Source: Planctomycetota bacterium (GTDB taxonomy: Bacteria > Planctomycetota > UBA1135 > UBA2386). Taken from it: a DNA stretch of 8,064 bases. The notes under the pieces were generated by a model. That model was not told where the DNA came from. It worked only from the letters and a program-made list of their open reading frames with translations, and ran no database searches. The translations under genes and the position numbers were made by a program. Position 1 is the first letter of the stretch. Each line of letters opens with the position of its first letter. The DNA is taken from NCBI GenBank assembly GCA_003235605.1, contig QJVU01000344.1:1-8064 (forward strand), in the 5' to 3' direction. This document shows positions 250 through 8,064 of the stretch, piece after piece.

Positions 250-370
250 GTCGCCCCGGGATCGAGGACCCCAGGTCGAAACCATCCACGCCGGAGGCGC
301 AAGGAGTCCTTGGAGTATAGGATTGGCGACAAGACTCGGAGCCGCCCCCCCCCAACACGTCTTCCATAAG
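250..370 (+). other. Intergenic leader with a C9 homopolymer
   Basis: These 121 nt separate the first partial gene from the next exported protein gene. An AAGGAG at 301-306 and a GGAG at 312-315 resemble ribosome-binding sites. They lie too far from the ATG at 371, but the second sits about 7 nt before a possible TTG start at 323. A run of nine C residues occupies 345-353. No convincing promoter or terminator hairpin was seen. Confidence 0.5.
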
Positions 371-1492
371 ATGGCAATGAACATCAAGCTCACCTGCGTC
401 CTCGGCGCGATCCTCGGCTCCTCGATCCTGGCCCAGAACTTCGTCACCACTCCACCGTCCGGTACGACGCTGGAGGGCCCGGACTCGACCCTCATCTTCG
501 GCTGGGCAGCCAACCAAGGACACCGCTTCATGGACAACACCCACGTTGGAGCCAAGCGCGGCCTCAAGGGCGTGTCGTTCCGGTCCGACTACCGGAACCA
601 CGACGCGATCGGCCGCACCTGGTCCAACGTGACGGTGATGGCAGCACATGGCGACTTCACCTCGATCTCGAAGTTGTCGCCCGACTACAAGCTCAAGGAC
701 ACGCCCACCAAGGTGTTCGATTCCCGGTGGAGCTTCCCGGCCCTGAAGGGGACCCCGGCGCTGAACCCTGCCGCGTGGGGCGGCGCGACCGGTGCCCTGA
801 ACTTCCGCTTCTCGACGCCCTGGGCCTACAACGGCAACGACGCCATCTTCCTCGAATGGCAGTTCAGCGGCGGCGTGGCCGACAACAACGTGCCGTGGGT
901 GGGCCCGACCCCGAGGGGCTTCGAGTACTACCTCGATTCGATGCCAGAGTCGATGTGGGAGGGCAGCAACAAGATCACCCAGACCCACCCGACCACACTG
1001 TCGCCCTGCTATGACTCCGCGTTCTACAAAGGCGGAACAAGCAAGACCAACGCTACCATCGACGCCTGGTTGAGCGGCACCGAGACCGCCGAACTCGTGG
1101 TCAAGACGAACTACACCTCGACGAAGAATCCCGTCATCTATGCCGTGGGTCTCGCCGGCAACGCCCAGGGTCTCGATCTTGGCGCGGGCTGCAACCGGCT
1201 GTACGTCGACTTCACCAGCCCCACCGTACTCGTCTACCTCCCTGCTCCCAGCAACACGACGGCGTTCGCAAGCCTGACGCAGACGGCGACGCGGAAGGCA
1301 TGGATGAAGGAGGTATGGGTCCAAGCGGCCTGGGCCGATTCGTCCAACCAGAGCCTCAGGCTGACCCATGCCGTGCAGGCCGCTTTTGGCTCCGCGAAGC
1401 CAGTCCCGGTGTTCGCGTCCTATGCGACGCCGAGCTTCAGTGTCTGGAATCAGGGACAGAAAGGTCTGCCCTACATGCGCTACGAGTACTGA
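371..1492 (+). CDS. Exported protein of unknown function with a divergent planctomycete-type C-terminal domain
   Basis: This 373-residue protein begins with a classic signal peptide (residues about 1-22: short Lys-bearing n-region, hydrophobic LGAILGSSI core, cleavage near LAQ). I chose ATG 371; ATG 377 also works. The frame is open back to a TTG at 323, but that would put a long polar stretch before the signal peptide. The mature protein is rich in aromatic residues, Thr, Ser and Asn and has only two cysteines, one in SPCYDS and one in a GAGC motif at about residue 274. A segment QAAWAD...LTHA (about 318-334) matches the position and spacing of the QA...D...SNA element ending the kelch gene downstream, so the C-terminal third may be a divergent copy of that domain. 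No enzymatic motif was recognised. A long reverse-strand open frame over the same DNA is a high-GC shadow. Confidence 0.85.
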   Translation: MAMNIKLTCVLGAILGSSILAQNFVTTPPSGTTLEGPDSTLIFGWAANQGHRFMDNTHVGAKRGLKGVSFRSDYRNHDAIGRTWSNVTVMAAHGDFTSISKLSPDYKLKDTPTKVFDSRWSFPALKGTPALNPAAWGGATGALNFRFSTPWAYNGNDAIFLEWQFSGGVADNNVPWVGPTPRGFEYYLDSMPESMWEGSNKITQTHPTTLSPCYDSAFYKGGTSKTNATIDAWLSGTETAELVVKTNYTSTKNPVIYAVGLAGNAQGLDLGAGCNRLYVDFTSPTVLVYLPAPSNTTAFASLTQTATRKAWMKEVWVQAAWADSSNQSLRLTHAVQAAFGSAKPVPVFASYATPSFSVWNQGQKGLPYMRYEY

Positions 1493-1551
1493 GTCAACCT
1501 CCCAGGCTTTCGCGCCTACTGCCACTTCGGCTACAAGGCCAAGGCCGGTAG

Positions 1552-1611
1552 TGCCGGCCTCACGCACGGGCTGGACATCTCGGAACCGGTGGCATGGGCG
1601 AGGTCTACCGC
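1552..1611 (+). pseudogene. Relic of a Ser/Thr kinase glycine-rich loop
   Basis: One short frame reads HLGTGGMGEVYR at 1576-1611, the P-loop signature of bacterial Hanks-type kinases. The intact kinase in this window has LLGTGGMGEVYL at 4045-4080. Both copies also have Pro-His at the same distance upstream (PH, five residues, then LG). The two DNA copies differ mostly at third codon positions (Leu, Gly, Gly and Glu codons), as expected if both were once under coding selection. Upstream the frame is closed by a TAG at 1549-1551; downstream it loses kinase character within a few codons (no VAVK lysine) and stops about 110 nt later. It is therefore a fragment, not a gene. A motif of this length arising by chance is unlikely but cannot be excluded by eye. 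Confidence 0.6.
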
Positions 1612-1661
1612 TCGCCTTGGGTCCCGGCTGGTCAACCCACCCGCCAGCCGGAGCCCAGAAC

Positions 1662-2029
1662 GAGAGAAGCTTCCCCCTCACTGTCGCCCTGGCCCCGGCC
1701 CTGGCCCTTTCCCTGGCCCTAGCCGACACTCTCGTCGCCCAGGGGACCCACACTCCCATCGGCAGCGGTTGTCCCGGCAGCAAGGGAGTGCCGACGCCGC
1801 GCTGCGGGTCCTCATGGAGCGCAGCCAGAAGGCCCGCTAGCGCCGCCCAGCTTCCGCATCTGGCTTCGAGTATTGCGGTCACAGGGGTTGGCGACGTTGG
1901 AAGGCCTCCATCTCGTTCGTGATTCCGAAGCTGTCACCGCCGCCAATCACGCTCTTCCACGCCTTTCCCGTGTTCGACAGTCAGGGAATCTACATGGCGA
2001 GCAACGCGGCGCCACTCAGCCTGAGATAA
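1662..2029 (+). pseudogene. Frameshifted, internally deleted relic of a secreted protein with the shared C-terminal domain
   Basis: In one frame a signal-peptide-like segment (hydrophobic Leu/Ala core, about 1671-1742, ending LVAQ) leads into GSGCPGSKGVP at 1761-1793, close to GKGCQGSAGVP of the intact kelch protein. The rest of that frame looks random and ends at 1922. In another frame, 1910-2029 reads SFVIP...LFHAFPVFDSQG...MASNAAPLSLR then TAA, matching the kelch C-terminus (TVPNDS...FNQAYVPDQ...MSNAA). From the GC cysteine to the SNA serine is 230 nt here against 357 nt in the intact copy, so about 127 nt are missing, not a multiple of three. No ATG begins the signal-peptide frame. A small exported protein consisting mainly of this domain is the likely ancestor. 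An assembly or sequencing error is possible but would not explain the missing length. Confidence 0.6.
1687..1722 (+). repeat. Three tandem 12-nt repeats (CCCTGGCC plus four variable bases)
   Basis: CCCTGGCC occurs at 1687, 1699 and 1711, each followed by four differing bases, giving an exact 12-nt period. In the reading frame of the relic it encodes the Leu/Ala-rich hydrophobic core of the signal-peptide-like segment, so each repeat unit adds four residues without shifting the frame. Confidence 0.75.
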
Positions 2030-2259
2030 GCGACCGTACCGCGCAGGTCGGGGTTGAGCGGCGCCGCTAGCCCCTGGGAGCCCGGACGTCGCGTCGGGCG
2101 GTCGTCGAACCTGTGGTCGAGGCGCTGAGCAGCTGGGCGTCCGAGCAGAATCGCACACACGCACCCTGGGACGCGGCGGGCAATGGAGTCAGCACGGGTA
2201 TCATGAACCGCACTTGGTGAGTCCGAAACAGCGATCCCTTCATCCTTGTGAGATCAGCC

Positions 2260-3660
2260 ATGCTCGTTCGCCCCACCCTGTTCTCGGCGTTCGCTCTCGC
2301 GGTAGCCACACCGCTCTCCGTGTCGGCACAGAGCCTGACATGGGTACGGGTTGCAAGCTCGGGCCCCCCCCAACGCTGCTGCCATGCAATGGCATATGAC
2401 GTGCAGCGTCAACGCACGGTGTTGTTCGGGGGGTGGGACATAGGCAAGGCAGCGGTGTTGGGCGACACCTGGGAGTGGGACGGCAAGGCGTGGAAGCAGG
2501 TCCAACCCAAGACCGTGCCGGCTTCACGTTGCTGTCACGCCATGACGTACGACTCGGGCCGCGGCCGCACGATCATGTTCGGCGGCGCCGGCAACGGGTC
2601 GGGCACCGACCTGTCGGACACATGGGAGTGGGATGGCACGGACTGGACCAAGATCAACACCCAGAACAGTCCAAGGCCTCGCCGATCGCCGATGCTGACC
2701 TACCATCTGACCAGCGGCAAGACCCTGCTGTTCGGCGGCGGGACCGGCAGCACGGGTTCGCCGTTCTTCCAGGAAACGTGGACCTATGACGGCAAGGACT
2801 GGACGCAGCTCAGCCCGAAGAACAGTCCTTTGGCACGCTGGGGCAGCGCGTTCGCGTTCCAGCTTACCCGCGCCAAGACCCTGCTGTTCGGCGGCGCGGG
2901 TGAGAAAGGAGCGGTCTACAACGACACCTGGGAGTGGGACGGCAACGACTGGACCAAACTGGGTCCGAAGAACAGTCCCTCGGCCCGATGGTTGATGTCT
3001 GGTGCTTTCAGCCTCGCCAACCGTCGCGTCTTCGTGTTTGGCGGTAGGCTCGACAAGCCGGACACCTGGGAGTGGGACGGCGTCGACTGGACTCCAACCA
3101 AGGTTGCCGCGTCTCCCGGAGGCCGCTCGGATCTGGCAATGGTCTATGAGCCGACGCGCAAGGTGATGACGGTGTTTGGCGGCTTCGCCAGGACGGCGGG
3201 GGTGCTCGGCGACACCTGGGAGCTCGTCAACGACCCGACGGCCACCTACACCAGCCTGGGCAAGGGCTGCCAGGGGAGCGCGGGCGTGCCTGCGCTTGCC
3301 GCGACGTCCTCAGGACCGATCATCGCGAAGCCCTTTGTCGTGAACATCACGAACGTACCGACCAAGACCAACACCATCCTGTTGCTGTTCGGTTTCTCCA
3401 AGACCCAGTGGGGCTCGCTCAACCTGCCCTGGGACATGAGTCCCTTGGGCATGCCTGGCTGCACCCTCTACGCCAGCGCCGACGTCATGGTGCCGCTGCC
3501 CAGTTCGAACGGTGGCGCCAGCCTGGGTTTGACGGTGCCCAACGACAGCACGCTCGTGAACGTGTTCTACTTCAACCAAGCCTATGTTCCAGACCAGACC
3601 CTGGGACCGTTCGGGGCGTGCATGAGCAATGCCGCCGAGGCGAAGATAGGGAGCAAGTGA
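2260..3660 (+). CDS. Exported kelch-repeat beta-propeller protein
   Basis: The protein has 466 residues from ATG 2260. A GTG at 2248 in the same frame is an alternative adding four residues; neither has a clear ribosome-binding site. Residues 1-24 form a signal peptide ending SVSAQ. Six kelch repeats follow (about 43-323), each of the form AM.YD...R/K..(L/V/M)FGG...DTWEWDG.DW, consistent with a six-bladed propeller, a fold normally used for protein or carbohydrate binding. The blades pair Gly-Gly with the downstream Trp as in known kelch motifs. From about 333 to the end lies a separate domain opening LGKGCQGSAGVP and closing QAYVPD...SNAA, a terminal domain I associate with exported proteins of some Planctomycetota; its role is not known to me. 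No copper-ligand domain of galactose oxidase is evident. A run of eight C residues sits early in the gene. It is probably transcribed on its own, with a 132-nt gap to the kinase gene. Confidence 0.9.
   Translation: MLVRPTLFSAFALAVATPLSVSAQSLTWVRVASSGPPQRCCHAMAYDVQRQRTVLFGGWDIGKAAVLGDTWEWDGKAWKQVQPKTVPASRCCHAMTYDSGRGRTIMFGGAGNGSGTDLSDTWEWDGTDWTKINTQNSPRPRRSPMLTYHLTSGKTLLFGGGTGSTGSPFFQETWTYDGKDWTQLSPKNSPLARWGSAFAFQLTRAKTLLFGGAGEKGAVYNDTWEWDGNDWTKLGPKNSPSARWLMSGAFSLANRRVFVFGGRLDKPDTWEWDGVDWTPTKVAASPGGRSDLAMVYEPTRKVMTVFGGFARTAGVLGDTWELVNDPTATYTSLGKGCQGSAGVPALAATSSGPIIAKPFVVNITNVPTKTNTILLLFGFSKTQWGSLNLPWDMSPLGMPGCTLYASADVMVPLPSSNGGASLGLTVPNDSTLVNVFYFNQAYVPDQTLGPFGACMSNAAEAKIGSK
2364..2371 (+). repeat. 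C8 homopolymer inside the kelch gene
   Basis: Eight consecutive C residues encode part of Gly-Pro-Pro at about residues 35-37, shortly after the signal peptide. A one-base slip here would truncate nearly the whole protein. A similar C9 run followed by AAC precedes the exported protein gene at 371. Confidence 0.8.
2464..3081 (+). repeat. Internal DNA repeats encoding kelch blades
   Basis: A 21-nt unit encoding DTWEWDG recurs nearly identically at 2464, 2617, 2923 and 3061, with weaker versions at 2773 (ETWTYDG) and 3211 (DTWEL). Spacing is 138-156 nt, one propeller blade of about 46-52 residues. The high nucleotide identity suggests recent blade duplication or gene conversion. Confidence 0.8.
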
Positions 3661-3722
3661 CGATCGCGCGCCGTCCGAACAAAACCGAAAGGGCCTCAAT
3701 CAGAAGAAGATCCAGCAGAAGC

Positions 3723-3747
3723 GCCCCAGGTCGGGTTGTTGTTTTTT
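3723..3747 (+). terminator. Weak terminator-like element after the kelch gene
   Basis: A short CCC-AGGTC-GGG inverted repeat is followed by TTGTTGTTTTTT, a T-rich tract that stands out in this GC-rich DNA, within the 132-nt gap between the kelch and kinase genes. The stem has only about three base pairs, so this could equally be part of the kinase gene's promoter region. Confidence 0.25.
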
Positions 3748-3792
3748 GGGCCCCCATCCCCGTCTCCATCCGCCGGTTGGTACCCTTGAGGG

Positions 3793-6429
3793 ATGAGCTC
3801 GCCCCCGACCGATGGTGCAGATCCGGACGCGCGGCAGCCCACCGAGGCGGACGAGCTCGTGGCCCGCTGCGTCCAGGAGATCGAGACGGAGGGGGACGTC
3901 GTCGTCGACCGTGTGTGCGCCGAGCACCCGGAGCTGGCTGACGAGATCCGCTCGCGGCTGGAACACCTGCACGGGATGGGCCTTCTGCGGCCGCGCAGCC
4001 CGCGCAAGGAGCTGCGCCAGATTGGTCCCCACAGCGTGTTGCGCCTGCTGGGGACCGGCGGCATGGGCGAAGTCTACCTCTGTGAGCAGCGCGACCCGGT
4101 GGTTCGTCGGGTGGCAGTGAAGGTGATCCGCGTCGGCATGGACACCGACGAGGTCGTGCGGCGCTTCGAAGCCGAGCGCCAGGTCCTGGCGCTCATGAAC
4201 CACCCGAACATCGCCGGAGTCTACGACGCGGGCTTGACCGAAGAGGGGAGACCGTACTTCGTGATGGAGTACGTCGCCGGAGCGCCGATCACGACGTACT
4301 GCGACACGGTACGGATGTCGACCGACGACCGACTCGAGCTCTTCACGAAGGTCTGCGATGCCGTTCAGCACGCGCACCATCGCGGGGTGCTGCACCGTGA
4401 CTTGAAGCCCTCGAACATTCTGGTCACCGAACAACACAGCCGTGTGGAACCGAAGATCATCGACTTCGGGATCGCCAAGGCAGCGGGCGCACGGTTCACG
4501 GTCGACGCGCCGGTCACGGTGCCGGGCCAGATGATCGGCACCCCCGAGTACATGAGCCCCGAGCAGGCTGCCTCCGGCGGTCAAGACGTCGATACCCGCA
4601 CCGACGTCTACTCCCTGGGTGTAGTCCTCTACGAGTTGCTCTGCGGCGAGCTGCCCTTTGACCCGAAGACCCTGCGTAGCGCCAGCGCCGTTGAACTGCA
4701 CCGGATCCTCCACGAGGAGGTACCTAGGACGCCCAGCACCCGCGCTACCCGCGGGGACGCCGCGACCACCCGGCGCACCGACCCCGCATCATTGCGCCGG
4801 CGCCTGCGAGGCGACCTGGACTGGATCGTGCTGCGCGCGCTGGAGAAGGACCGCAGCCGCAGGTACCCGACCGTCCTGGACCTGGCCGCGGACATCCGCC
4901 GGCACCTTGCCCACGAGCCGGTCGTGGCCGGCCCGCCGACGCTGCGATACCGGTTCGGCAAGCTGGTGCGCCGGCACCGCGTGGAGTTCAGCGCTCTGGC
5001 CACCGTGATGATCGCACTGATCGCGGGCCTCTTGATCAGTTGGCGATACGCCCGTCTGGCCGAGGCGAAGGCCCGGGAGTTCGACCAACTCGCCGGGGTC
5101 ATCCGGCACGAGCAGGTGCTGGCCCAGGAGCGCTACCTCTATCCGGCGTGGCCGGAGAAGATCGAGTCGATGGAGCGATGGCTGGCCGACGTCGAGGGGC
5201 TGCGGGACATGCGCACAGAGCTCCGCAAGACGGTGGCGCGGATCGAGAGCCGTGCTTCGGGTTCGCGGTCGGGCGTGGAGGAGGATTCCAGGGCCTTCCT
5301 GCTGACGACCCTGGAGGAACTGATCGACAGGATCGCCGGGCTCGAAGCAAAGGAGCGCAAGGGCGTTGTGGAACGGCTGGACTGGGCCCGGAGGGTGAGG
5401 GCGCTGACCGAGGCTCATCCGCGGGCTCGAGTGTCCTGGGCGGCGGCGCGGGCGGCGATTGCCGCCGCCGACGATGTCGTCGCCAGCGCACGCTACCGGG
5501 ACAGCGGCATCGATCTGCGACCGCAAACCGGGCTCGTGCCCATCGGCATGAACCCCCTCACGAAGCTCTGGGAGTTCTACCACTTGCGCTCGGCATGGAG
5601 CCCGACGTCGGGTACCGACCCGCGCGAGCTGCCGATCCCCAGTCACCGTCCGGACGGCTCGATCGACATTACGGAGGCGACCGGCATCGTGTTCGTGCTG
5701 TTGCCCGGCGGCGCGTTCCTCATGGGATCGCAGACCGAGGATCCGCACGCGCCGAACTACGACCCCGGCAGGATGAATGAGGAGGGGAAGCTACACGAGG
5801 AGACGGTGCAGCCCTTCTTCCTCGCCCGCCACGAGTTGACCCAGGGGCAGTGGATGCGGCTGATGGGGGGCAAGAACCCGAGCCGCTACCCGCCCGGCTT
5901 CAAGGCCGGGCCGATGAAGGTCGCCACCACTGCTGTCCACCCCGTGGAACAGCTGACCTGGACGATGGCCCAAGACCTCGTCCACCGCCACGGCCTCGCG
6001 CTGCCGTCCGAGGCTGAATGGGAGTACGCCTGCCGCGCGGAAACCACGACGCCCTGGTACTCGGGGGTGGAACCCTCAGGTCTCCGCCGTGTGGCCAACG
6101 TCCTCGATCAGGTCGCGCGGCTGGCAGGGTGGCAGGGGGACTTCGAGGCCTGGGACGATGGCTACATGCTCCATGCCCCGGTCGGCTCCTACGAGCCTAA
6201 CCGGTTCGGCCTGTTCGACATGCACGGCAACGTCTGGGAGTGGTGCGCCTTGCCGCCCGGCGTGAAGCCTGGGCGCTCCGGCGAAGTCGTGAACCACGTC
6301 TTTCGAGGCGGGAGCTTCTACTACGAAGCGAAATGGGCCCGCGCCTCAGCGCGCATCCATCACAGTTCCGAATTCACCGGCAGCTACATGGGCATGCGCA
6401 CTTCACGACCCCTGAAACCGGGTCGGTAA
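3793..6429 (+). CDS. Transmembrane Ser/Thr protein kinase fused to a SUMF1/FGE-like domain
   Basis: The 878-residue protein begins at ATG 3793. Residues 1-70 are a short acidic helical region (CAEHPELADEIRSRL). The kinase domain spans about 78-375 with all key motifs: GTGGMGEVY 87-95, VAVK Lys110, probable alpha-C Glu128, HRDLKPSN with Asp203, Lys205 and Asn208, DFG 224-226, SPE 255-257 and Asp271. LRGDLDWIV...EKDRSRRY near the end marks a subfamily common in planctomycetes. One membrane segment follows at about 399-417, then an alpha-helical, partly coiled-coil region (about 420-570), GLVPIGMNP...LWEF (about 581-595) and a SUMF1-like domain (about 631-875) with TQGQW, LPSEAEWEYACRAE, MHGNVWEW and RGGSF. 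Active formylglycine-generating enzymes have two cysteines just after GGSF; here that stretch is YYEAKWARAS, so catalysis is unlikely. The kinase should be cytoplasmic and the SUMF1 domain extracytoplasmic, suggesting signal sensing. Confidence 0.95.
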   Translation: MSSPPTDGADPDARQPTEADELVARCVQEIETEGDVVVDRVCAEHPELADEIRSRLEHLHGMGLLRPRSPRKELRQIGPHSVLRLLGTGGMGEVYLCEQRDPVVRRVAVKVIRVGMDTDEVVRRFEAERQVLALMNHPNIAGVYDAGLTEEGRPYFVMEYVAGAPITTYCDTVRMSTDDRLELFTKVCDAVQHAHHRGVLHRDLKPSNILVTEQHSRVEPKIIDFGIAKAAGARFTVDAPVTVPGQMIGTPEYMSPEQAASGGQDVDTRTDVYSLGVVLYELLCGELPFDPKTLRSASAVELHRILHEEVPRTPSTRATRGDAATTRRTDPASLRRRLRGDLDWIVLRALEKDRSRRYPTVLDLAADIRRHLAHEPVVAGPPTLRYRFGKLVRRHRVEFSALATVMIALIAGLLISWRYARLAEAKAREFDQLAGVIRHEQVLAQERYLYPAWPEKIESMERWLADVEGLRDMRTELRKTVARIESRASGSRSGVEEDSRAFLLTTLEELIDRIAGLEAKERKGVVERLDWARRVRALTEAHPRARVSWAAARAAIAAADDVVASARYRDSGIDLRPQTGLVPIGMNPLTKLWEFYHLRSAWSPTSGTDPRELPIPSHRPDGSIDITEATGIVFVLLPGGAFLMGSQTEDPHAPNYDPGRMNEEGKLHEETVQPFFLARHELTQGQWMRLMGGKNPSRYPPGFKAGPMKVATTAVHPVEQLTWTMAQDLVHRHGLALPSEAEWEYACRAETTTPWYSGVEPSGLRRVANVLDQVARLAGWQGDFEAWDDGYMLHAPVGSYEPNRFGLFDMHGNVWEWCALPPGVKPGRSGEVVNHVFRGGSFYYEAKWARASARIHHSSEFTGSYMGMRTSRPLKPGR

Positions 6430-6475: not shown

Positions 6476-8064
6476 ATGAGGCAGTTCAAGACAGTCGTGC
6501 TCCTGTCCGCCGCGGCAGCCATGTTCGCTCTCGCCAGCCTGGCTGCCCTGTGGCCCACCGAGGAGATCGTCGTCGACCAGACGGCCTCGCAGAGCGAGGA
6601 GCAGCATGCGACAGCCGCGCCCGATCCCTTGGACGAAGGCCGCGAGGTGCTCCGAAACCCCGGCTGGTACGGTGCCCCAGTGGGAAGCCGGTTCCGCTAT
6701 CGCTGCGTGGCGGACACCCAGATGACAGTCCGCCAGGGCAAGGGCGGTTCCTCCGAGCGTCTGGCTGTTGGCATCCGGGGACAGCTGGAGGTGCTCGTGG
6801 TCACCCGTCGCAATGGTGAAATGGTGCTGCAGATGGCCTTCCCTGGCGTTCGCTTCCAGGCAGCGGACCATGCTACCTGCCAGAAGCTCCAGGCAGCGCT
6901 GGTCCGTCCGTTCCTCGTGCGGACTTCATCGACGGGCAACACCAAGGGCTACCGCTTCGGTCCGGGACTGGGCGCCTCGACCCGGCGCTGGATTCGCGCG
7001 CTGGTCTCGGCCTGGCGGGTGGTTGCGCCCGAGGCCGAGGAGGCCGAGTGGGCCGCGAAGGAGGGCGATGGAATGGGCTGGGCGCGAACCGAGTACCGCG
7101 CCGTCGCCCTTGAAGGACAGATGCTCCACGTCGAGCGCGCGCGCCTGGTCCAGCACGAACGTGTGCCACCCGGCGAAACCATCCAGGCCGGCCCCGAGGC
7201 GGATGGCCGAGGCCAGGCCTGCCTCGACGGAACGATCCGGTGGCTTCGATCCTGTCGCTGGGAGGACCGCTCCTATTCCGCGATCGCGGAAGCCGATGTC
7301 CAGCTCTCGGGCTGGTGGCGGAGCAGCTACCAGATGATCAGCCACGCAACCGTCCCCGTTTCCGCGCTGCCGCGGGTGGCGTGGGACGAGCCATGGGACG
7401 GCGCCGTAGGATCACCGGAGCTCGACGACGCCGAAGCTGCCCGGAACGAGGCGGAGCAGATGCGCGCGTTGCTGGCCGGAGTCACGTGCATCGAGCTGAC
7501 CACCAAGCTCGCCGAGCTGGCGAGGTTGGACAAGTTCGACAGCCCGGAGATGCATGAGGCCATCGAGCATCTGGCCTGGCTCGTGCGCCTGCGTCCGGAC
7601 ACGCTGCGGGAGCTGCACGTCCTGACCAACGAGCCGACCACCGACCCGAAGTTGGCGGCACTGGTCCTGAACGCCATCGGCACGGCCGGCACCCCTGCGG
7701 CCCAGGTCCAGCTCGGCGGGATCCTCGGCAACGTGAACCACAAGGAGGCCCGGCGCGTGGCCGCGGCACACGCATTGTTCCAGACCGCGAAGCCGACCCC
7801 AACGGTGCTGGACGGGATCCACGCCATCGCTGCAGCACCACACGAGGTTCCCGGCGTCGCGGGCACCAGCATGTTACTGCTGGGGGCGCTCGTGTCCGGG
7901 CTGCCGGAGGGAGCACCGGAACGCGTCCAGGCGCAGTCGCGCCTGCTGGCTCTGGAAGGCCATGCCCTCCGTGCAGGCCTCAAGGTCGACTGGCTCGAGG
8001 CCTTGGGCAATGCCCGGATGGTGAAGCAGGCTGCGCGCTTCCTGCAGGACGAGGACCCGGAGAT
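6476..8064 (+). CDS. Envelope protein with a possible vitellogenin_N/lipid-transfer-like and helical-repeat layout (3' truncated)
   Basis: The frame is open from ATG 6476 to the window end, giving 529 codons plus two bases. The start lies 46 nt after the kinase stop. GGAGG at 6446-6450 is too far upstream to be a normal ribosome-binding site. Residues about 6-26 form a hydrophobic signal peptide or anchor, followed by an acidic Gln/Glu/Ala-rich linker. Residues about 70-235 look beta-rich, opening with GSRFRYRC, then alternating hydrophobic strands and a RRWIRALVSAW helix near 170. From about 325 the protein is helical, with repeat-like units such as LAALVLNAIGTAGTPAAQVQL resembling HEAT or vitellogenin helical repeats. 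A sheet opening with G..(F/Y).Y followed by a helical horseshoe is the layout of the N-terminal module of large lipid transfer proteins. I infer that likeness from layout and short motifs only. Co-transcription with the kinase is likely; it may be a client or partner. Confidence 0.8.
   Translation, partial: MRQFKTVVLLSAAAAMFALASLAALWPTEEIVVDQTASQSEEQHATAAPDPLDEGREVLRNPGWYGAPVGSRFRYRCVADTQMTVRQGKGGSSERLAVGIRGQLEVLVVTRRNGEMVLQMAFPGVRFQAADHATCQKLQAALVRPFLVRTSSTGNTKGYRFGPGLGASTRRWIRALVSAWRVVAPEAEEAEWAAKEGDGMGWARTEYRAVALEGQMLHVERARLVQHERVPPGETIQAGPEADGRGQACLDGTIRWLRSCRWEDRSYSAIAEADVQLSGWWRSSYQMISHATVPVSALPRVAWDEPWDGAVGSPELDDAEAARNEAEQMRALLAGVTCIELTTKLAELARLDKFDSPEMHEAIEHLAWLVRLRPDTLRELHVLTNEPTTDPKLAALVLNAIGTAGTPAAQVQLGGILGNVNHKEARRVAAAHALFQTAKPTPTVLDGIHAIAAAPHEVPGVAGTSMLLLGALVSGLPEGAPERVQAQSRLLALEGHALRAGLKVDWLEALGNARMVKQAARFLQDEDPE

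What the first reader, a model, noticed from the sequence alone, without database searches (positions are those of the whole stretch)
6476..8064. Possible bacterial relative of the large lipid transfer protein (vitellogenin_N) module
The protein after the kinase combines a hydrophobic leader, a beta-rich region opening with a G..F.Y motif and an all-helical repeat region. This order is the hallmark of vitellogenin, apolipoprotein B and microsomal triglyceride transfer protein N-terminal modules. If real, it would be an envelope lipid carrier next to a membrane kinase in a planctomycete. The open frame and leader are seen directly; the family assignment is inference.
Basis: partly seen in the sequence, partly recalled or inferred. 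Interest (0 to 1): 0.7.

Follow-up and report, generated by a model that had tools for sequence, protein, structure and literature searches.

The report
Bacterial cousin of yolk lipid-transfer proteins
A bacterial, probably planctomycete, gene encodes a membrane-anchored protein built like the front half of the animal proteins that load and carry fat (vitellogenin, apolipoprotein B, MTP), and in most of the bacterial relatives examined a neighbouring gene encodes a secreted protein predicted to look like the missing fat-holding half.

Summary
ORF 6476-8062+ (529 codons, open at the window end) has a hydrophobic N-terminal helix, a linker, a beta domain and a helical-repeat domain. Alone it hits no Pfam family. 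A 20-sequence family profile matches lipovitellin collinearly over both domains (1.7e-29) and MTP (1.4e-12). The beta domain alone still finds lipovitellin, and nothing else significant (6.5e-6), so shared HEAT repeats do not explain the match. The AlphaFold model (pLDDT 83.9) has MTP, lipovitellin, ApoB and vitellogenin as its ten best PDB hits.

The chain lacks the lipid-holding C-terminal half. In relatives a nearby gene encodes a secreted all-beta protein: 29 of 35 loci, 10 of 16 held out. Its model's best PDB hits are MTP and lipovitellin, aligning to MTP 584-884, essentially the lipid-transfer domain. Sequence searches do not confirm that relation.

Best reading: half of a split, two-subunit bacterial large lipid transfer protein. 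Homology of the module is near certain; lipid transfer is inferred. No partner was found in this window, which ends within the gene. The kinase neighbour is not specific.

The parts
6476..8064 (+). Large-lipid-transfer N-terminal (Vitellogenin_N-like) gene, open at the window end; total about 551 aa inferred from P0001
   Evidence: ORF; relatives; family profile vs PDB; AF2 model and fold search; C-terminal 22 aa from P0001
6479..6547 (+). N-terminal hydrophobic helix (residues 2-24), signal anchor or signal peptide
   Evidence: AF2 helix 2-24; a hydrophobic N-terminal segment (KD15 > 1.6) in 18 of 20 members of A4
6548..6661 (+). Low-confidence linker (residues 25-62)
   Evidence: pLDDT < 50 for residues 25-59
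6662..7375 (+). N-sheet beta barrel domain (residues 63-300) with two inserted helices (132-142, 167-180)
7415..8062 (+). Helical horseshoe / HEAT-like domain (residues 314-529, cut by the window end)
   Evidence: AF2 helices 314-524; collinear with the lipovitellin helical domain
3793..6429 (+). Upstream neighbour, judged not part of the system: Ser/Thr kinase + FGE-sulfatase domain protein, 46 bp upstream, same strand
   Evidence: Pfam Pkinase 5.3e-45 and FGE-sulfatase 1.1e-33; association not specific

Best explanation
The gene encodes an inner-membrane-anchored, periplasm-facing protein that is homologous to the N-terminal module (N-sheet barrel + helical horseshoe) of animal large lipid transfer proteins. 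In its relatives it works with a separate secreted beta-sheet protein, encoded nearby, that forms the lipid cavity. Together the two subunits would make a split, MTP-like lipid transfer protein. The anchored half docks the complex at the inner membrane, cradles the beta-sheet half as the helical horseshoe of MTP does, and helps load or unload lipid for transport across the periplasm. Shown: ORF, homology and (by prediction) fold of the anchored module, and conserved adjacency of the partner in relatives. Supported only by one predicted structure: that the partner has the MTP lipid-domain fold. Inferred: that the two bind each other, that they carry lipid, which lipid, the direction of transfer, the membrane topology, and that a partner gene lies beyond position 8064 here.
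Confidence: 0.6

Rival explanations
1. MTP-apoB-like chaperone: the anchored module is an assembly factor for the secreted amphipathic beta-sheet partner, which then goes to the outer membrane or cell surface; lipid handling is incidental.
Against: The best partner matches are MTP's own lipid domain with 214-232 aligned residues, against 95-151 for the next four rows, all outer-membrane barrels; the other 15 of 19 do not end in F.
Confidence: 0.2
2. The module acts alone as a periplasmic binding scaffold (protein or glycan receptor), reusing the barrel as ApoB's barrel binds the LDL receptor; adjacency of the partner reflects another shared task.
Against: The partner sits beside 29 of 35 module genes, and its model, searched without using adjacency, best matches the missing half of the same animal proteins.
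Confidence: 0.13
3. Not a relative: an unrelated beta domain fused to generic HEAT repeats, with a misleading Vitellogenin_N match from the repeats.
For: Generic HEAT proteins do ring near profile positions 458-590 of Vitellogenin_N, and six designed alpha-repeat chains outrank lipovitellin in the whole-family profile search.
Against: The beta domain alone finds lipovitellin and nothing else significant, and 6 of 17 such pieces hit Vitellogenin_N at E<=1; the collinear match covers chain 3-508; Foldseek and VIA agree over both domains.
Confidence: 0.04

Closest known systems
Microsomal triglyceride transfer protein (MTP) large subunit
   Same: Barrel + helical horseshoe in the same order (model 61-529 to MTP 22-499); in relatives the separate partner aligns to MTP 584-884, essentially its lipid-transfer domain.
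   Different: Two genes instead of one chain; membrane anchor; no known PDI partner; bacterial; no measured activity.
Lipovitellin / vitellogenin
   Different: No C- and A-sheets or later domains in the chain; not a yolk protein.
Apolipoprotein B-100 N-terminal module
   Different: ApoB continues into long lipid-binding beta belts in the same chain (recalled).
Bacterial lipid carriers with LolA-like folds (LolA3, LmcA)
   Same: Weak Foldseek matches to the model (1e-4 to 1e-3, TM below 0.2 by query length).
   Different: Ranks 11-16, below the ten animal lipid-transfer hits; no helical horseshoe (recalled).

Membership tests
Vitellogenin_N / large-lipid-transfer N-terminal module (homology) | N-sheet beta barrel homologous to lipovitellin's | tested here: met
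Vitellogenin_N / large-lipid-transfer N-terminal module (homology) | Helical horseshoe following the barrel, collinear with lipovitellin and MTP | tested here: met
   Profile 77-561 to 1lsh 3-508; 73-559 to MTP 23-512; structure
Pfam PF01347 as curated (score threshold, a detection criterion) | Own sequence scores over the gathering cut-off of 24 bits | tested here: not met
   Window protein: 0 Pfam families at E<=10. Family: 17 of 20 members of A4 match at E<=0.01; P0004 scores 55.3 bits; 38 of 392 genomes of the relatives' phylum have a match over the cut-off, some of them plain HEAT, against 0 of 14 controls
Complete large lipid transfer protein (MTP, vitellogenin, ApoB) | C-terminal lipid-holding beta-sheets in the same chain | tested here: not met
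   The relatives in A4 end at or soon after the helical repeats; P0001 ends 22 aa past the window
Complete large lipid transfer protein (MTP, vitellogenin, ApoB) | Lipid-holding beta-sheets supplied by a partner | tested here: inconclusive
   Partner fold matches MTP 584-884 and is adjacent in 29 of 35 loci; no sequence support; not found in this window
Complete large lipid transfer protein (MTP, vitellogenin, ApoB) | Binds and transfers neutral or phospholipid | not testable with these tools
   Needs biochemistry
Generic HEAT-repeat protein | No more than the repeats is shared with lipid-transfer proteins | tested here: not met
   The barrel matches without the repeats
Kinase-linked signalling module | Conserved orthologous kinase next to the gene | tested here: not met
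   A kinase-like frame in 16 of 41 relative loci as well as the window, but at least 43 kinase matches in each of 8 genomes sampled, and in G126, G001 and G237 the nearby kinase is not the closest relative of the window's kinase

The most novel reading that the evidence does not exclude
These bacteria, probably Planctomycetota, have a complete two-subunit large lipid transfer protein, with anchored N-module and soluble lipid-cavity subunit encoded side by side, that is the bacterial sister or ancestor of the animal vitellogenin/ApoB/MTP family, so the yolk and lipoprotein machinery goes back to a bacterial envelope lipid shuttle later fused into one chain.
Probability: 0.4. Interest if true: 0.92.

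Novelty: new variant of a known kind. Interest (0 to 1): 0.8.

Why it matters
Large lipid transfer proteins are, as far as I recall, treated as an animal family whose origin is unclear; the listings of the paper searches named under Tried and rejected showed no report of a bacterial one. A diverse bacterial family with the same module, usually next to a gene for what looks like its missing half, makes the origin question testable by phylogeny and structure. It also suggests an unsuspected route for moving lipid across the enlarged periplasm of planctomycetes. Two ordinary genes can be expressed and assayed.

Tried and rejected
Generic HEAT artefact: rejected by the beta-domain-only profile. 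Kinase as functional partner: rejected as background; an apparent partner-kinase-module order in G237 (L136) is a single case. Lipid-cavity Pfam families: Vit_open_b-sht PF09172 in 17 genomes gave nothing, but nothing rang in the 14 controls either, so it is uninformative; MTP_lip_bd PF19444 in 26 genomes gave one match, E=1.28, elsewhere in G082, and one control also rang below the cut-off. Partner profiles with 19 and 35 rows against PDB sequences: none with 19 rows; with 35 rows four matches at E 0.11-0.49 (concanavalin A, a portal protein), none to a lipid-transfer protein. The fifth round of the local partner search drifted (window 3703-4788, reverse strand of the kinase, and L001 5616-6695); only rounds up to the fourth were used. 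Viral contigs with A1: 9 pattern matches, no relative. Plasmids with P0004: none. A first script picked the wrong strand for L011 and L019 and was redone. Papers: searches, listings only and several capped (for instance 12 of 1,474 papers shown and 10 of 783); none of the titles or abstract starts listed reports a bacterial large lipid transfer protein. The library lacks most subscription journals and preprints, so this is weak evidence of novelty. P0004 and P0014 already carry PF01347 in precomputed annotation, so automatic annotation has flagged single bacterial proteins. No tree with animal sequences was built because none were in hand.

Counts: the 35 rows are the top rows (E<=1.4e-30, before the list passes to weaker, mostly HEAT-only matches); they and the 45 partner rows were typed by hand into the script from the two outputs. 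One search scored at most 6 candidates and at most 3 per genome, so the counts are lower bounds. Nineteen of the 29 partners are those from which the profile was made and had been found by looking at flanks, so the fair number is 10 of 16 (12 of 16). Misses: G006:C11 (contig ends 355 bp upstream; nothing in the 2.1 kb downstream), G031:C27 and G119:C697 (module gene cut by a contig end; nothing upstream), G273 (true miss), G006:C6 and G237 (found only locally, about 2.1 and 2.8 kb away). Of 45 partner rows, 12 are not beside a listed module row; three of these (G018:C95, G006:C85, G006:C78) lie beside weaker module matches, nine do not.

Full report
What is there. The ORF at 6476-8062+ is open at the window end. 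It has no Pfam match at E<=10 and no NCBIfam match at E<=1, and its only PDB sequence match is E=0.66. The protein search returned three proteins: P0001, nearly identical (1 mismatch in 424 residues) and ending 22 residues past the window, and two 646-647 aa proteins of about 30% identity. One scan of reference genomes gave a single relative, in a named MAG (bacterium isolate Co_bin.47, L001). A search of 199 genomes of that genome's phylum brought in further full-length relatives. The phylum looks like Planctomycetota: 15 of 25 sampled genomes carry PSD1, a domain I recall as planctomycete-typical, against 0 of 14 controls. The window itself could not be placed because no genome is held for it.

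Is it the Vitellogenin_N module? The window protein alone gives nothing. P0003, P0002 and L001 give Vitellogenin_N hits below the cut-off (23.2, 18.5 and 20.6 bits against 24), and P0004 scores 55.3 bits. Of the 20 members of alignment A4, 17 match Vitellogenin_N at E<=0.01, best 2.6e-24. The A4 profile finds lipovitellin at 1.7e-29 in a single stretch, chain residues 3-508, and MTP at 1.4e-12, among 177,635 PDB sequences. Six designed alpha-repeat chains rank above lipovitellin, in the HEAT part only. Because generic HEAT proteins can ring Vitellogenin_N near profile positions 458-590, I cut the repeats off. The beta-domain-only profile of 17 members finds lipovitellin at 6.5e-6, the next match being 0.07; it does not reach MTP. 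Of the 17 pieces, 6 hit Vitellogenin_N at E<=1, best 7.9e-9.

What is missing, and what sits next door. In MTP the C-terminal beta domain (604-894) holds lipid binding and transfer (PMC3337244, passage seen). The bacterial chains end at or soon after the helical repeats. Reading the flanks of relatives showed a secreted, all-beta-looking protein beside the gene. A local iterated profile found it in 19 of 21 relative loci searched with flanks, not in L056, L071 or the window. Profiles of both proteins were then run over the same 392 genomes, with at most 6 and 3 candidates per genome scored. Of the 35 top module rows, 29 have the partner on the same strand, 24-636 bp away, 26 upstream and 3 downstream. 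Leaving out the 19 loci that built the partner profile, 10 of 16 have it, and 12 of 16 with a local search. Partner matches occur in 31 of the 392 genomes at E<=1e-4; nine of the 45 partner rows lie beside no module match that I found.

How it most likely works. An N-terminal hydrophobic segment is present in 18 of 20 module proteins and 16 of 19 partners. I infer an anchored periplasm-facing module and a secreted partner that together form a split MTP-like lipid transfer protein. The homology of the module is shown and its fold predicted with good confidence; adjacency is shown in relatives; binding, cargo and direction are inference. The chief rival is that the module chaperones the partner, as MTP does apoB.

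The kinase. The gene 46 bp upstream is a Ser/Thr kinase with an FGE-sulfatase domain. A kinase-like frame lies in 16 of the 41 relative loci as well as in the window. In G126, G001 and G237 the kinase near the module gene is not the window kinase's closest relative. I do not count it as a partner.

Novelty. Single bacterial proteins already carry automatic Vitellogenin_N annotation. None of the papers listed in nine searches (listings only, several capped) reports a bacterial large lipid transfer protein or a split one in its title or abstract start. In PMC3337244 and PMC10907164 I saw only search passages.

Noticed in passing
window 3793-6429 +: Ser/Thr kinase fused to an FGE-sulfatase-like domain; G001 alone has 70 matches to it at E<=1e-60.
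   Followed up: partly
window 2248-3660 +: Kelch-repeat protein with a leader-like N-terminus (MRSAMLVRPTLFSAFALAVATPLSVSAQ) and a C-terminal GKGCQGSAGVPAL stretch.
   Followed up: no
window 323-1492 +: 389-aa ORF, perhaps a secreted protein starting further inside the frame, with no Pfam or NCBIfam match; not hit by the partner profile.
   Followed up: partly
G006 (L056, L063, L071, L138 and others): One 4.2 Mb genome shows module-gene matches on several contigs (C11, C49, C6, C85, C78, C122; C20), a striking expansion.
   Followed up: no
L136 (G237:C333) 720-5890 +: Partner, kinase and module gene lie in a row on one strand; single case.
   Followed up: partly
L142 (G027:C7) 4356-9300 +: Two partner genes in a row before the module gene.
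   Followed up: no
G119:C697 end and G119:C263 start: Module gene ends one contig and a partner gene starts another, as if one locus were split by assembly.
   Followed up: no
Pfam PF01347 profile positions 458-590: Generic bacterial HEAT proteins match this part of Vitellogenin_N, so automatic PF01347 annotation in bacteria mixes true modules with plain HEAT repeats.
   Followed up: yes
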